DNA of 64,000 nt from Aquibaculum arenosum (GTDB taxonomy: Bacteria; Pseudomonadota; Alphaproteobacteria; Kiloniellales; DSM-21159): positions 1 through 64,000 of the forward strand of contig NZ_JARHUD010000004.1 of the NCBI RefSeq assembly GCF_029222965.1, written 5' to 3'. Positions 11,070-16,048 of this stretch are shown piece by piece (positions within the stretch are counted from its first letter, which is position 1; the number at the start of each line of letters is the position of its first letter). A model generated the notes under the pieces. The model ran no database searches. It had not been told where the DNA came from and was given only the letters and a program-made list of their open reading frames with translations. The position numbers and the translations under genes were made by a program.

Positions 11070-11456
11070 TCAGTCTTCCCCGGTGAGCTGGCGGATGCGC
11101 GCTTCCAGCGACTTTACGGTCGCTTCCAGTGCGGCGACCCGGGCGTGGAGTAGGTCGATTTCGCCAGGCGCCCTTGTGGCCTCGGCGAGAGTCTTCCCGA
11201 ATTCAACTCCCACGTTGTATCCGCGTTTCCAGACGACGCGCACACGGCGTGTGACCTGGAGCTTGGGAATGGAAAGCTGAAACTGTTCAGGCAGAGTCTC
11301 GATCATCTCTAACTGAATCAGCGCTCCGTGTTGCGATATGTTGCGGATGATCGCACTCAGCGGCGGTTCGTCAGGGCGAAGAGTGAGCTGCGCCGAGAGC
11401 AGAGTTTGGCGGCGCTCTGAGCGTCGATCCTCCTCGGACTGACCGATGCCGCTCAT
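11070..11456 (-). CDS. PilZ domain protein with C-terminal coiled coil
   Basis: A 128-residue protein, probably a cyclic-di-GMP receptor. The PilZ signature is present: RRSERR near residues 11-16, then NISQHGALI about 30 residues later. The last 35 residues are heptad-like (LLHARVAALEATVKSLEARI) and should form a coiled coil for oligomerisation. A strong AAAGGAGGT lies 5 nt before the ATG at 11456, which settles the start. It is divergent from the secreted-protein pair. A GGDEF-EAL protein is encoded at 47.8-50.1 kb. Confidence 0.85.
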   Translation of the reverse strand: MSGIGQSEEDRRSERRQTLLSAQLTLRPDEPPLSAIIRNISQHGALIQLEMIETLPEQFQLSIPKLQVTRRVRVVWKRGYNVGVEFGKTLAEATRAPGEIDLLHARVAALEATVKSLEARIRQLTGED

Positions 11457-11726
11457 GTTACCTCCTTTAACCTTCTTCTTGTTGGAATAGCGCTCGGGTG
11501 CCGGTGTCTCGTGACCAGCACGATCATGACATATCCGGCTTGCGAGGCAATGACTTAGCATCCGATGCCTTGTGTGATCGCCCCTGCCCCTTCGAACGCA
11601 GGGGGCGACGGGGGTAGGCCTTTGCTAGCCTGCTTGAAAATCGCTTGCCCTCCCGGATGCATTTGCTTTCGGCCGAGGCCTGCGTGTTCGAGTTCTGAGC
11701 AAACGATCAAGGAGGCCATGGTCCCA

Positions 11727-12485
11727 ATGATGCGACGCCCGCTACTCTCCTCGTCCTGCGTTTTCGCCGCTGCACTGTTGGTCGGTCCGGCCCCGGCTCA
11801 GGACATGAATATCCCCGACTTCGAGGCGCCTGACGAGGTGGAGATCCTCGGCCATGTCAGGGCCACGCTGGACGGCGAGGATCGGGAGTGGGTGACCATC
11901 TACGGCATCGCCGGCGGTGAGGCGGGGGGCAGCGCTACCTGGAGCAGCGGCCTGCCGGGGGGACTGCCCGGCGGCTCGCAGGACGATGCCTTTGCCCAGA
12001 TGCAGGAAGGGGGGGGCCTGTCGCCGGAGCAGCAGGCCATGCTGGAGATGATGCAGGAACGCCTGGCGCACCAGCGCGCGGCCCTGCTGCAAACGATCGA
12101 CGTCTCCATCGCCGGCCACGACCCGGCCAGCGACAAGCTGCTGACCGAAGGCGTGCTCTCCTTGCAGCCCCAACTCGTCGGGGGCCCGGAGGAGTGGCAG
12201 GCCAATCTCGGTACTCCGATGTCGGCCGAGATACTCTATGTGATCGAGAGCAATCGCGGCATGCCGGCGGTCTTCTACACCACGGATACCGACATGAATG
12301 CCCTTGGCGAGATCACCTTCACGGACCTGAGCTTTGAGGAGCCTTTCGGGACTGCGGTCGGAAGCTTCAACGCGCGCCTCTGTCGTGTGGAGATGCCGAG
12401 CATGATGGAGGTCAACTCCTTTCCGGATGACTGTCTCGAGGTCGACGGCAGCTTTGAGACGGAGCTCTTCGCGGAACGCTACTGA
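11727..12485 (+). CDS. secreted protein, partner of the metzincin gene, hypothetical
   Basis: A 252-residue exported protein: signal peptide MMRRPLLSSSCVFAAALLVG with likely cleavage after APA-Q. AAGGAGG at 11709-11715 is 11 nt before this ATG; an in-frame ATG at 11718 is too close to it. A Gly-rich stretch (about residues 68-88) precedes a helical, Gln/Glu-rich segment (LSPEQQAMLEMMQERLAHQRAA). The last 60 residues contain three cysteines. The TGA stop overlaps the next gene's ATG (TGATG), so the two are almost certainly co-translated. I recognise no family. Confidence 0.75.
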   Translation: MMRRPLLSSSCVFAAALLVGPAPAQDMNIPDFEAPDEVEILGHVRATLDGEDREWVTIYGIAGGEAGGSATWSSGLPGGLPGGSQDDAFAQMQEGGGLSPEQQAMLEMMQERLAHQRAALLQTIDVSIAGHDPASDKLLTEGVLSLQPQLVGGPEEWQANLGTPMSAEILYVIESNRGMPAVFYTTDTDMNALGEITFTDLSFEEPFGTAVGSFNARLCRVEMPSMMEVNSFPDDCLEVDGSFETELFAERY

Positions 12486-15400
12486 TGCGTCCCGGCCTGG
12501 CGGCAGGGTTGCTCGGCGCGCTGCTGCTGGCGGCCACCGCTGTACAGGCACAGCGCGCAACCCTGCCGCTCTCGCCGGAAGCCCTGGAGGACGCCCCGAA
12601 ACCGCCGGCTATGGGCCTGCCAGAGATGGACCTCGAGTCCCTCGGCGGCATATTCCAAGCAATCGAGGACATTGCCGGTGGTGAGTGGGCCGGTGGTGAG
12701 TGGGCCGGTGGCGAGTGGATCGAGACGCCCGAGTACGACGATTGGCGCCTGTTCATCAACGAGCAGGCGGAAGGTGCCGTCCTGCCGCCCCTGATCACCA
12801 TTCCCGTGGTCTGGGGGTGGCGGGCGCACGGCGACTGGTCCTCCGAGCACAGCGGGCAGGCCCAGCTCACCGGCATCGTCTTCCGTGATCGGGTGCAGCT
12901 GATCGCGCCCCTGCGGGCCGAGGGCTTCGACTTCCCGCACCTCTTCTGGTCGACCGTTTCGCACAAGAGCCCCGACATCTTCCACGCGCCCTTCTATCAC
13001 TCTGAAGGTCGGGGCGGCACCGGGCTGGAGGCGATCAGCGACAACCTCTTTGCCAGCGAGCGCTTCCAGAACATCCCGCGCGAGCGGCTGCATGCCGGCA
13101 CCTTCGAGTCCCTGACCGGTGAGACGATCTTCGAGGGGCCGGAAACGCGGGTGGACAGCGGGCGCGTGCGGGTCGATCAGAGGCACGCCGCCGGTCCGGC
13201 CATCCAGTTTACGGCCTACGTCTCGGAGTATGAGGACGGGCCGGGCGTCACCCCGCAGCCCACCGGCCGGAGGGCCGAGATCAGCGGCTACATCTGTCCC
13301 ATCGAAGTCTGGGAAGCGGTGCCGGACTTCTGCCAGCCGGGCTTGAAGGTGGATGCGGTACAGCCGCCGCCGGGGCGCGAGAACGTCAACTACCATGACC
13401 CGAGCATCGCGGTGACCTTCAGCGAGCCCGTCGACCCGGAGTCGCTGGAGAAGGGCTTTAGGCTCTACACCCGGGCAGCTGACGGCGAAGAACTGGAAGT
13501 GGAGGGTCGCTGGGAGCAGGGCGATGGGCCGACCAACTATCGTTTCGAGGCCACGGGGGGCTTCGAGATGCGCTCGGGGATCGTCATGGCGGCGCGCATT
13601 GCCGGGGGCGAGGAGGGGGTGACGACCGTCGATGGGGAGCGCTGGCTGCAGCAGGATGAGCCCTGGCGCTTCTCCACCCTGCTCAACATGGCGAAGGAAG
13701 ACAATCCGCAGGATTTCTCCGGGCGGCTCCACAGCTTTCAGGTGGTGCGCGACGCGCCGCTGACCCGGGACAAGCCCAGCCTGACCCGGCTTTATCTCGA
13801 TTGGCAACTCCACGACGATATCGACGAGAACTGGCAGCCGCGCAGCTATCCCACGCGCCTGAAGATCACGCCGGACCACCCCCGTCTGGTGGGGCAGTAC
13901 GGCATCCTGCCGCGCGAGTCGCCGGATATGGTGCGGATCTGGCGAGATGAGGAGTTCGGCGAGGAGCGGCGGCGGCTTGCCGAGAACACGGTCAACTTCT
14001 TCGGCTGGAAGCCCGAGCGCGGCACGCGCGAGATCGTGGTCAGCGCGCGCGCCCACGAGCCCTTTCCGTCTGCCAGCACTGCCGAAGAGGGGCGGGTCGA
14101 CACCTCGGTCGAGGTCTGGCGCCATGATCCGGCACCGCACACCCTGCATTTCACCGCGGCGATGGTCGGAAGCTGGCGCGAGGGCATCCCCCAGGGACAG
14201 TGGCGGCGCATGCTGGCGACGCTGGATGCGGCGCGGGTCATGGCGCCGCAGTTCTTCCCCTATCGCTCGGTGCACGCGCGCTCGGCCAGTTTCATCCTGC
14301 TGGAGGACGTGGCGCGGATGGAAGCGGACGACCTGCGCAGCTTTGAGGTGAAAGACCTGGTCTTTGGCACCCAGCCGGTCGAGGGAGAGGCGTCGGGCAG
14401 CCTTTTGCACGACGCGCTGGAGAACGATGCGGTCATGCGTCTGCTGGGCTGGGACGAGGTGATCCCCGACCATGAGCGCCGTCGCGGCACAGCGAATGAG
14501 GAACACGCCGCCGACTTCGCCGAGCAGATCCGCAACCTGATGGTGGCCTTCCTGGTGCAGCTCGACCGCCTGTCCCGGACCATGTCGCCCAACGACACTT
14601 TCCTCGTCTTCGTGCCGACCGATTTCATGGATGCCCTGGGTGTCGGCGTGGGGTCCATGGTGCGACAGAAGAACGATCCCGGAATCTTCGTGGTCCCCGG
14701 CATGCGCGCCGCCCTGGTCGCCATCGGGGACGAGTACTGGCTCGGGGTGGATGAGATGGCCCAGGCCCTTCTGCACGAACTGGGCCATGAGCACGGCTTG
14801 GCCCACAATCCCGGCGATGCCGATCGCATCCCCCCAGGCATGAAGTACGTCTCACCGATCGAAATCGAGGCCTGGCGCATGGACCCGGGCGGGCTTTCGG
14901 GCTTCAACAAGTCTTCCGACGAGGGCAATGGCGAGCACCCGCAGGTCCTGGTGCCAATGATGTGGCCCTACATAATCCCGACGCGCGAAATGTCCATGAC
15001 CGACGCCGAGTACCGCACTCTGCTCCGCTCGATCGAGGGGGGCACCGATGCCGTGCGTTTCGGGTCGGCGCCGCTCGAGCCCTATCGTGTGGCGGCTGCC
15101 CCCGAGAGCAGCCTGGTGGACCTGGCGCCGGCGCCGGCCGAGCGCCTCGTGCTGCGCGGGCGCATTGCTGCTGATGGGGAGACGGCCGAGATCACCTCCC
15201 TGGAACTGAGCGCGGCGCCGCAGCCGGCCAACGCAGAGGGCCCCTATCGCGCGCAGCTGCTAAATGCGCGGGGCGCGACCTTGGCGGAGGCTTCCTTCGA
15301 GCTCTACGACCTGCTCGACGCCGAGGGCTGGGATGAAGATCGGCTACCGGAAACATTGACACGCCGGTTCAGCGTGAGCCTGCCCTGGCGCAGCGCTGCT

Positions 15401-16048
15401 GCGGAGTTGGTGGTAAGCACCGGCGAGCGCGAGCTGCTCCACCTCGAAGCGCCGATTGAGGCACCGCGTTTCGTCGTGCCCCCGCAGGTTCTGGCTGAGG
15501 ACTCCGATGCGCTGTTCGTTGGCTGGCGCATGCAGGACCCCGACCTGACCTACGACCTCGCCTACAGCCCCAACGGCACAGCGCCCTGGCACGGGATTGC
15601 CGTCCGGCAGCAGGGCAATGCTGCCTTGCTGCCGCGTGCCCTGCTGGAACCAGGGTCGGCGCCGACGCTTCGGGTCACGGTGCATGACGGCCTGCGTTTT
15701 GAGCGCGCCAAGCTGTCACTTGTCGAGAGCCTGGTGCCCGAGATCCACCTGGAGTCGCTGCCGGACGGTGAGGCCGTGGCCGAAGGAGTGCCGCTCACTC
15801 TGGCCTACACCGCGCCGCTCAGCCTCCAGGAACTCGAGAGCGGATTGCGGCTGGTCGATGCGGAAGGGAAGCCGGTGGCTGCACGCTTCTACGCCAACCC
15901 CGCCGCGCAACGGGCCAGTCTCTTTCTGCCGGCCGTGCAGGCGGTGGCCGGGCCTCTGACCTTGGAACTGGCACTGGAGCTGGGGCATCTGATCGGACCT
16001 GACGGTGAGGCCGCGACGCGAGTGACCCTGCCGATGCGCGGCGAGTAG
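12485..16048 (+). CDS. large secreted protein with metzincin-type zinc protease motif
   Basis: An 1187-residue protein with an N-terminal signal segment (PGLAAGLLGALLLAATAVQA). Residues 764-774 read HELGHEHGLAH, a full HExxHxxGxxH zinc site with catalytic Glu765. A downstream VPMMWPYI followed by MTDAEYRTL resembles the metzincin Met-turn and following helix. Before it, about residues 295-375, lies a bacterial Ig-like domain (VTFSEPVDPESLEKGFRLY); a second such module is likely near residues 1080-1180. Near the N-terminus the pentapeptide AGGEW occurs three times from a 15-bp tandem repeat. It is probably a surface or periplasmic metalloprotease. The substrate is unknown and the overall architecture is unfamiliar to me. 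Coupled to the preceding secreted protein. Confidence 0.85.
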   Translation: MRPGLAAGLLGALLLAATAVQAQRATLPLSPEALEDAPKPPAMGLPEMDLESLGGIFQAIEDIAGGEWAGGEWAGGEWIETPEYDDWRLFINEQAEGAVLPPLITIPVVWGWRAHGDWSSEHSGQAQLTGIVFRDRVQLIAPLRAEGFDFPHLFWSTVSHKSPDIFHAPFYHSEGRGGTGLEAISDNLFASERFQNIPRERLHAGTFESLTGETIFEGPETRVDSGRVRVDQRHAAGPAIQFTAYVSEYEDGPGVTPQPTGRRAEISGYICPIEVWEAVPDFCQPGLKVDAVQPPPGRENVNYHDPSIAVTFSEPVDPESLEKGFRLYTRAADGEELEVEGRWEQGDGPTNYRFEATGGFEMRSGIVMAARIAGGEEGVTTVDGERWLQQDEPWRFSTLLNMAKEDNPQDFSGRLHSFQVVRDAPLTRDKPSLTRLYLDWQLHDDIDENWQPRSYPTRLKITPDHPRLVGQYGILPRESPDMVRIWRDEEFGEERRRLAENTVNFFGWKPERGTREIVVSARAHEPFPSASTAEEGRVDTSVEVWRHDPAPHTLHFTAAMVGSWREGIPQGQWRRMLATLDAARVMAPQFFPYRSVHARSASFILLEDVARMEADDLRSFEVKDLVFGTQPVEGEASGSLLHDALENDAVMRLLGWDEVIPDHERRRGTANEEHAADFAEQIRNLMVAFLVQLDRLSRTMSPNDTFLVFVPTDFMDALGVGVGSMVRQKNDPGIFVVPGMRAALVAIGDEYWLGVDEMAQALLHELGHEHGLAHNPGDADRIPPGMKYVSPIEIEAWRMDPGGLSGFNKSSDEGNGEHPQVLVPMMWPYIIPTREMSMTDAEYRTLLRSIEGGTDAVRFGSAPLEPYRVAAAPESSLVDLAPAPAERLVLRGRIAADGETAEITSLELSAAPQPANAEGPYRAQLLNARGATLAEASFELYDLLDAEGWDEDRLPETLTRRFSVSLPWRSAAAELVVSTGERELLHLEAPIEAPRFVVPPQVLAEDSDALFVGWRMQDPDLTYDLAYSPNGTAPWHGIAVRQQGNAALLPRALLEPGSAPTLRVTVHDGLRFERAKLSLVESLVPEIHLESLPDGEAVAEGVPLTLAYTAPLSLQELESGLRLVDAEGKPVAARFYANPAAQRASLFLPAVQAVAGPLTLELALELGHLIGPDGEAATRVTLPMRGE
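12674..12718 (+). repeat. 15-bp tandem repeat (three units) inside the metzincin gene
   Basis: Three head-to-tail copies of a 15-bp unit, GCCGGTGGTGAGTGG twice and GCCGGTGGCGAGTGG once, encoding AGGEW three times. Being a multiple of three, changes in copy number would keep the frame. Confidence 0.9.

What the first reader, a model, noticed from the sequence alone, without database searches (positions are those of the whole stretch)
11727..16048. Coupled pair of secreted proteins, the second a giant metzincin-like protease
The pair is translationally coupled (TGATG) and both proteins are exported. The larger has an intact HELGHEHGLAH zinc site at residues 764-774, a Met-turn candidate, one or two Ig-like modules and a triple AGGEW repeat. 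The first protein could be a propeptide, inhibitor or targeting partner. I know no described family with this order of domains.
Basis: partly seen in the sequence, partly recalled or inferred. Interest (0 to 1): 0.6.

Follow-up and report, generated by a model that had tools for sequence, protein, structure and literature searches.

The report
Exported zinc protease with dedicated partner
Two overlapping genes encode an exported zinc-dependent protease of a previously uncatalogued family and a small exported partner that travels with it across salt- and alkali-loving bacteria, a pairing that resembles known proteases that are kept in check by their own chaperone.

Summary
ORF A (11727-12485, 252 aa) and ORF B (12485-16048, 1187 aa) overlap as TGATG, and both begin with signal peptides. 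ORF B belongs to a family that I assembled here (27 proteases). All 27 keep HExxH plus the third His, and at least 26 keep a methionine in a (L/M)MxP turn 50-70 residues later. The predicted catalytic module matches metzincins (StcE Z 9.6, adamalysins and ADAMs Z 8-9), but no Pfam or NCBIfam peptidase model reaches its cut-off. Named relatives are annotated only as 'Ig-like domain-containing' or 'hypothetical'.

ORF A is a real, dedicated partner. It lies directly upstream of 16 of the 27 proteases, is under purifying selection, co-diverges with its protease (Mantel r 0.82) and has two invariant cysteines. Its confident model has an LpqH-like beta fold. It is clade-specific: four proteases have a different upstream partner and seven have none found.

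Most likely this is a periplasmic or secreted zinc endopeptidase with a co-made chaperone/inhibitor, analogous to CpaA-CpaB; the partner's role is inferred, not shown. The genome lacks the T2SS marker (T2SSG), so the export route differs from StcE and CpaA. The triple AGGEW is a local 15-bp duplication, not a family feature.

The parts
11727..12485 (+). ORF A: exported partner protein, 252 aa, LpqH-like beta fold, no Pfam or NCBIfam family
11727..11798 (+). Predicted Sec signal peptide of ORF A (cleavage near APA|QD)
   Evidence: sequence inspection; relatives have similar leaders
12381..12434 (+). The two invariant cysteines of the partner family (C219, codon 12381-12383; C236, codon 12432-12434), likely a disulfide
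   Evidence: alignment A3
12483..12487 (+). TGATG stop/start overlap (translational coupling inferred)
   Evidence: junctions in relatives
12485..16048 (+). ORF B: exported metzincin-like zinc protease, 1187 aa
12485..12550 (+). Predicted Sec signal peptide of ORF B (cleavage near VQA|Q)
   Evidence: sequence inspection
12674..12718 (+). AGGEW x3: 15-bp tandem repeat x3, specific to this copy
   Evidence: absent in relatives
12776..13342 (+). N-terminal beta-rich region with a conserved Cys pair (residues 98-286)
   Evidence: not significantly related to the partner
13343..13678 (+). Big_5 bacterial Ig-like domain (residues ~287-398)
13697..14149 (+). Beta-sandwich domain with conserved Q419, K430, R435, W440, W450, N504, G507, W508, directly before the catalytic domain
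14150..15070 (+). Metzincin-like catalytic domain (residues ~556-862)
14774..14806 (+). HELGHEHGLAH zinc-binding motif (H764, E765, H768, H774)
14960..14962 (+). M826, conserved Met-turn methionine in (L/M)MxP
15071..16045 (+). C-terminal extension (residues 863-1187); relatives carry a second Big_5 at the C-terminus

Best explanation
ORF B is an exported zinc endopeptidase with a metzincin catalytic domain behind Ig-like and beta-sandwich modules, belonging to a family that is not in the current profile libraries. ORF A is its dedicated exported partner. The partner is translated just before and in step with the protease, crosses the inner membrane by Sec, forms a small disulfide-bonded LpqH-like beta protein, and binds the protease in the periplasm. 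There it acts as a private chaperone/inhibitor that lets the enzyme fold and stay harmless until it reaches its place of action outside the cell or at the surface, in the manner of CpaB with CpaA. Shown by computation: family membership, conservation of the active site, the metzincin-like predicted fold, and the conserved gene linkage and co-divergence of the partner. Inferred: proteolytic activity, translational coupling, physical binding, and the chaperone/inhibitor role.
For: Active-site residues are invariant in 19 members and the zinc motif in 27. The fold matches StcE Z 9.6 (290 residues aligned, 4.7 A), 1dth Z 9.3 and ADAM33 Z 9.0. The profile search found an archaemetzincin at E 3e-4, with reprolysins and serralysin below it. 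The partner is directly upstream in 16 of 27 loci and as a clade label on the tree needs 2 changes against 8.7 when shuffled. Partner and protease co-diverge (Mantel r 0.82, p 5e-5, 15 pairs; r 0.80 within the window's clade). dN/dS is 0.22 for the partner and 0.28 for the protease in one pair. The confident partner model (pLDDT 84.7) matches LpqH at Z 9.1 over 113 of 118 residues. There is a precedent: CpaB, encoded next to the metzincin CpaA, is needed for its stability and secretion and blocks its active site with its C-terminal tail (PMC7542363).
Against: Binding of the two proteins was not tested. Some clades lack this partner or use another protein. Partner-type genes also occur away from proteases in several genomes, so the fold may have other uses. 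CpaB is membrane-anchored, whereas this partner shows no lipobox or membrane anchor after its signal peptide. The genome lacks the T2SS marker T2SSG, so the CpaA analogy fails for the secretion route. Linked genes co-diverge to some extent even without binding. The protease model is of moderate confidence (pLDDT 61, pTM 0.66).
Confidence: 0.5

Rival explanations
1. The protease is a metzincin as described, but the partner is a substrate-recognition or cell-surface targeting subunit (or a soluble regulator in the periplasm) rather than a chaperone or inhibitor.
For: The partner is a compact beta domain like LpqH, HtaA-CR and avidin folds, which bind ligands or sit at the cell surface. It exists as a tandem double domain in L020 and L021 and as standalone genes elsewhere, which suits a binding module. 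Several proteases lack it.
Against: Its strict position immediately upstream, often overlapping, and its co-divergence with the protease suit an obligate co-folding factor at least as well. No ligand site is conserved apart from two Cys and a few Gly, Leu and Phe positions.
Confidence: 0.3
2. The enzyme is a glycopeptidase (mucinase-like), functionally a StcE/CpaA counterpart acting on O-glycosylated proteins in the saline habitat.
For: StcE is the top structural match and covers both the beta-sandwich and the catalytic domain. The Ig-like modules next to the active site resemble the arrangement described for CpaA and StcE.
Against: StcE is tied with adamalysins within Z 1. No Peptidase_M66 match reaches the cut-off. 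No glycan-binding residues could be tested, and host mucins are not an obvious substrate for free-living halophiles.
Confidence: 0.2
3. The adjacent partner gene is merely co-transcribed and has no functional link to the protease.
For: Standalone partner-type genes exist, and one clade of proteases has no partner found.
Against: It is directly upstream in 16 of 27 independently retrieved protease loci, across Rhodovibrionaceae, Rhodobacterales, a Sphingomonadales plasmid and Halomonas.
Confidence: 0.07
4. A degenerate or non-catalytic metzincin fold used for structural or binding purposes.
For: The Gly of HExxHxxGxxH is replaced by A, S or D in a few members. No activity data exist.
Against: The zinc-binding His residues and the catalytic Glu are invariant in all 27, and two homologous protease pairs show purifying selection.
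Confidence: 0.05

Closest known systems
StcE / peptidase family M66 (metzincin glycoprotease of E. coli)
   Same: Top fold match (3ujz, Z 9.6, 290 residues over beta-sandwich plus catalytic domain); HExxHxxGxxH zinc site; exported; Ig-like modules.
   Different: No Pfam M66 match above cut-off (best E 0.048, 7 of 13 members). M66 is reported to lack the conserved methionine (PMC7518263), whereas it is conserved here. StcE uses T2SS, whose marker T2SSG is absent from this genome. I know of no adjacent partner gene for StcE.
CpaA-CpaB of Acinetobacter (M72 metzincin with its dedicated chaperone)
   Same: Exported metzincin with Ig-like domains and an adjacent gene for an exported partner; chaperone-substrate complex chain 6o38_F, which I take to be CpaA, matched at Z 6.1.
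   Different: CpaB is membrane-anchored and CpaA goes through T2SS. This partner looks soluble, has an LpqH-like fold, and the genome has no T2SSG. Domain order differs from CpaA's four tandem Ig repeats.
Adamalysin/ADAM (M12B reprolysin) catalytic domains
   Same: Catalytic-domain fold (1dth Z 9.3, 1r54 Z 9.0, TACE Z 8.7).
   Different: Sequence matches to Reprolysin models stay below cut-off; architecture and partner are different; the spacing from the third His to the Met is 50-70 residues.
Archaemetzincin (M54)
   Same: Best sequence-profile hit in the PDB (2x7m, E 3e-4).
   Different: Lacks the four cysteines that define archaemetzincins (motif quoted in PMC3427221); M54 matched one member at E 0.17 only.
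LpqH, 19-kDa mycobacterial lipoprotein (fold of the partner)
   Same: 113 of 118 residues superpose at Z 9.1; small exported beta protein.
   Different: Sequence identity 13%, no Pfam match, no lipobox; adds a helical hairpin that short partners lack. Z 9 for a small beta protein may mean only a common arrangement.

Membership tests
Metzincin clan (MA(M)) | Extended zinc motif HEXXHXXGXXH (three His and a catalytic Glu) | tested here: met
   Present in ORF B (764-774) and, for HExxH plus the third His, in all 27 relatives; the Gly is mostly but not always kept
Metzincin clan (MA(M)) | Conserved methionine (Met-turn) downstream of the third His | tested here: met
   M826 aligned in 19 of 19; (L/M/V)MxP pattern found in 26 of 27, the exception being a gene split into two ORFs. 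Geometry of the turn in 3D was not measured
Metzincin clan (MA(M)) | Metzincin catalytic fold | tested here: met
   28 metzincin structures at Z 7.8-9.6, standing above the unrelated rows at about 5; model pLDDT 61, pTM 0.66
Peptidase M66 (StcE) | Match to the Pfam M66 profile above cut-off | tested here: not met
   7 of 13 members match weakly, best E 0.048
Peptidase M66 (StcE) | Secretion by T2SS | tested here: not met
   T2SSG absent from this genome and from 11 of 14 genomes tested, while the E. coli and Caulobacter controls ring
Peptidase M66 (StcE) | Cleavage of O-glycosylated substrates | not testable with these tools
   needs biochemistry
CpaA/CpaB-type protease-chaperone pair | Exported partner encoded next to the metzincin | tested here: met
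   16 of 27 loci
CpaA/CpaB-type protease-chaperone pair | Membrane-anchored chaperone and T2SS export | tested here: not met
   cleavable-looking leader without an anchor (by eye); no T2SSG
CpaA/CpaB-type protease-chaperone pair | Physical complex with the active site blocked by the chaperone tail | not testable with these tools
Archaemetzincin (M54) | Four conserved cysteines after the zinc motif (HEXXHXXGXXHCX4CXMX17CXXC) | tested here: not met
   no such cysteines in ORF B or the family alignment
LpqH family (partner) | LpqH fold | tested here: inconclusive
   Z 9.1, 113 residues aligned, 13% identity; no sequence-profile support
LpqH family (partner) | Lipoprotein signal (lipobox) | tested here: not met
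   leader ends APA|QD without a lipobox Cys (by eye)

The most novel reading that the evidence does not exclude
A new metzincin family, mobile among haloalkaliphilic proteobacteria, that carries an LpqH-fold protein as a dedicated periplasmic chaperone/inhibitor and reaches its site of action without a type II secretion system: a protease-chaperone pairing that evolved independently of CpaA-CpaB.
Probability: 0.3. Interest if true: 0.6.

Novelty: new variant of a known kind. Interest (0 to 1): 0.42.

Why it matters
It adds an uncatalogued family to the metzincins, one that databases now list only as 'Ig-like domain-containing' or 'hypothetical' protein. It also identifies a conserved partner, so that protease-chaperone pairing can be studied outside T2SS. 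The enzymes come mostly from saline and alkaline habitats and may be useful salt- or alkali-tolerant proteases or glycoproteases.

Tried and rejected
(1) Partner and protease N-terminal domain as homologues: both have a G..hC...PD.C ending, but profile comparison is not significant (prob 0.3-0.4%). (2) The AGGEW repeat as a functional module: it is a 15-bp tandem duplication absent from relatives. (3) G001 (same genus) seemed to have a partner but no protease; its contig ends inside a protease 94% identical over the matched part to the third copy of this genome. (4) The third protease of this genome seemed to lack a partner; the partner is split between the end of contig C6 and the start of C1. 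(5) A first genome-collection scan with the single protein found nothing; the alignment found 12 loci. (6) dN/dS for L022/L024 was out of frame and is discarded. (7) No promoter or terminator consensus sites were found around the genes, which is uninformative for this organism. (8) CpaB itself did not appear among the fold matches listed for the partner, which excludes nothing.

Full report
WHAT IS THERE. The stop of A and the start of B overlap (TGATG). Both begin with a typical Sec leader, judged by eye. Neither protein matches a Pfam, NCBIfam or PDB sequence above threshold; B has a sub-threshold Big_5 Ig-like hit. Fodinicurvata is Rhodovibrionaceae, Alphaproteobacteria.

THE PROTEASE FAMILY. 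Searching near relatives gave two more paralogues in the same genome and four in two same-family genomes taken to be Fodinicurvata. A profile scan of one genome per species gave 12 loci in Rhodobacterales, Halomonas alkalisoli, Oceanicaulis, Roseospira and Fodinicurvata. Further copies came from genome G072 (six copies), from three plasmids and from G452. In 19 aligned members the three zinc His, the Glu and the Met are invariant. All 27 keep HExxH plus the third His. The Met sits in a (L/M/V)MxP turn after a conserved I(E/D)G.R...DG..G..K....GN.(E/Q) segment. The one member in which that pattern was not found, the Qingshengfaniella plasmid copy, is split into two overlapping ORFs. Many hosts come from saline or alkaline places, judged from their names and recorded sources. 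The tree disagrees with host taxonomy (Halomonas next to Loktanella; this genome's third copy next to a Croceibacterium plasmid copy), so the family probably moves horizontally. It is rare: 3 of 385 genomes of the class had a match.

FOLD. Residues 405-862 were modelled with 13 sequences (pLDDT 61, pTM 0.66; the core around the zinc helix about 80). The second-look comparison puts StcE (M66) first (Z 9.6, 290 residues over both the beta-sandwich and the catalytic domain), followed by adamalysins, ADAM33, TACE and ADAMTS4 (Z 8-9), clearly above unrelated rows near Z 5; the chaperone-substrate complex chain 6o38_F, which I take to be CpaA, is at Z 6.1. Foldseek alone gave no match at E below 0.001 but ranked ADAM17 first. 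A profile search of PDB sequences puts an archaemetzincin first (E 3e-4) with reprolysins, serralysin and MMPs below. Weak hits to M10, Reprolysin, M66, M43 and M57 models occur in many members; none of those checked in detail is above cut-off. The conclusion is a metzincin not assigned to a library family. StcE and the adamalysins are tied within Z 1, so closeness to M66 in particular is not shown.

THE PARTNER. An alignment of ten partner domains from eight loci shows two invariant cysteines among nine invariant columns. The partner lies directly upstream of the protease, overlapping it or within about a hundred bases, in 15 of 27 loci. For a sixteenth, this genome's third copy, the partner start is at the very end of contig C6 and its last residues are at the start of C1, with one more small exported ORF before that protease. 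So all three proteases of this genome have one. The same-genus genome G001 repeats the third pair, with its protease cut by the contig end. On the tree the partner label needs 2 changes against 8.7 when shuffled. Partner and protease distances correlate (Mantel r 0.82, p 5e-5; within the window's clade r 0.80, p 7e-4); linkage alone can contribute to this. Purifying selection acts on both genes (dN/dS 0.22 partner and 0.28 protease for L029/L090). A second clade (L017, L018, L031, L098) has an unrelated 227-249 aa exported protein in the same place; in Fodinicurvata it sits in a run of coupled genes with a WG-repeat protein and, in G003, a vWA protein. A third clade has a longer N-terminus and no upstream partner. 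Partner-type genes also occur alone. The partner model is good (pLDDT 84.7, pTM 0.75) and superposes on LpqH (Z 9.1, 113 of 118 residues) ahead of OmpW-, HtaA- and avidin-type barrels. Standard Foldseek gave no significant match, so the fold assignment is tentative.

HOW IT PROBABLY WORKS. The pattern of an exported metzincin, Ig-like modules beside the active site, and a co-made exported partner is that of CpaA-CpaB. There the chaperone, encoded next to the protease, is needed for stability and secretion and plugs the active site with its tail (PMC7542363). The most likely role of ORF A is therefore a private chaperone/inhibitor in the periplasm. Against a simple copy of that system: the partner looks soluble, and T2SSG was not found in this genome or in 11 of 14 hosts in all, while controls were positive. 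The enzyme either works in the periplasm or leaves by another route. Binding, inhibition and substrate are not shown.

NOVELTY AND INTEREST. It is a new family within a known clan, with a conserved partner of an unexpected fold: a new variant of a known kind. A protease specialist would want it catalogued and the complex tested; nothing in it overturns established views.

Noticed in passing
L017 6133-13113 (-) and L018 2771-8477 (+), Fodinicurvata: Overlapping operon of a WG-repeat protein, a 249-aa exported protein and a 932-aa metzincin of this family, preceded in L017 by a vWA protein, with stop/start overlaps between the genes.
   Followed up: partly
G072 (loci L093-L098): One genome carries six paralogues of this protease family spread over the tree; none of the other 16 genomes searched in its family has any.
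   Followed up: partly
L040 (end of contig C6) and L015 (start of contig C1): The two ends of what looks like one partner gene suggest that contigs C6 and C1 are neighbours across an assembly gap.
   Followed up: yes
L015 1-600: An additional small exported ORF lies between the third partner and the third protease of this genome.
   Followed up: no
L090, L091, L092 (plasmids): The partner-protease pair is plasmid-borne in Roseinatronobacter, Croceibacterium and Qingshengfaniella, preceded by a further ~250-290 aa hypothetical protein and, further upstream, regulators; the Qingshengfaniella protease is split into two overlapping ORFs.
   Followed up: partly
L101 6808-7431, L102 6895-7488, L104 6009-6572, L105 6045-6569, L106 6864-7364: Standalone genes of the partner type without a protease of this family nearby; their role is unknown.
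   Followed up: partly
window 11070-11561 (-): A PilZ-domain protein is transcribed divergently from the pair.
   Followed up: no
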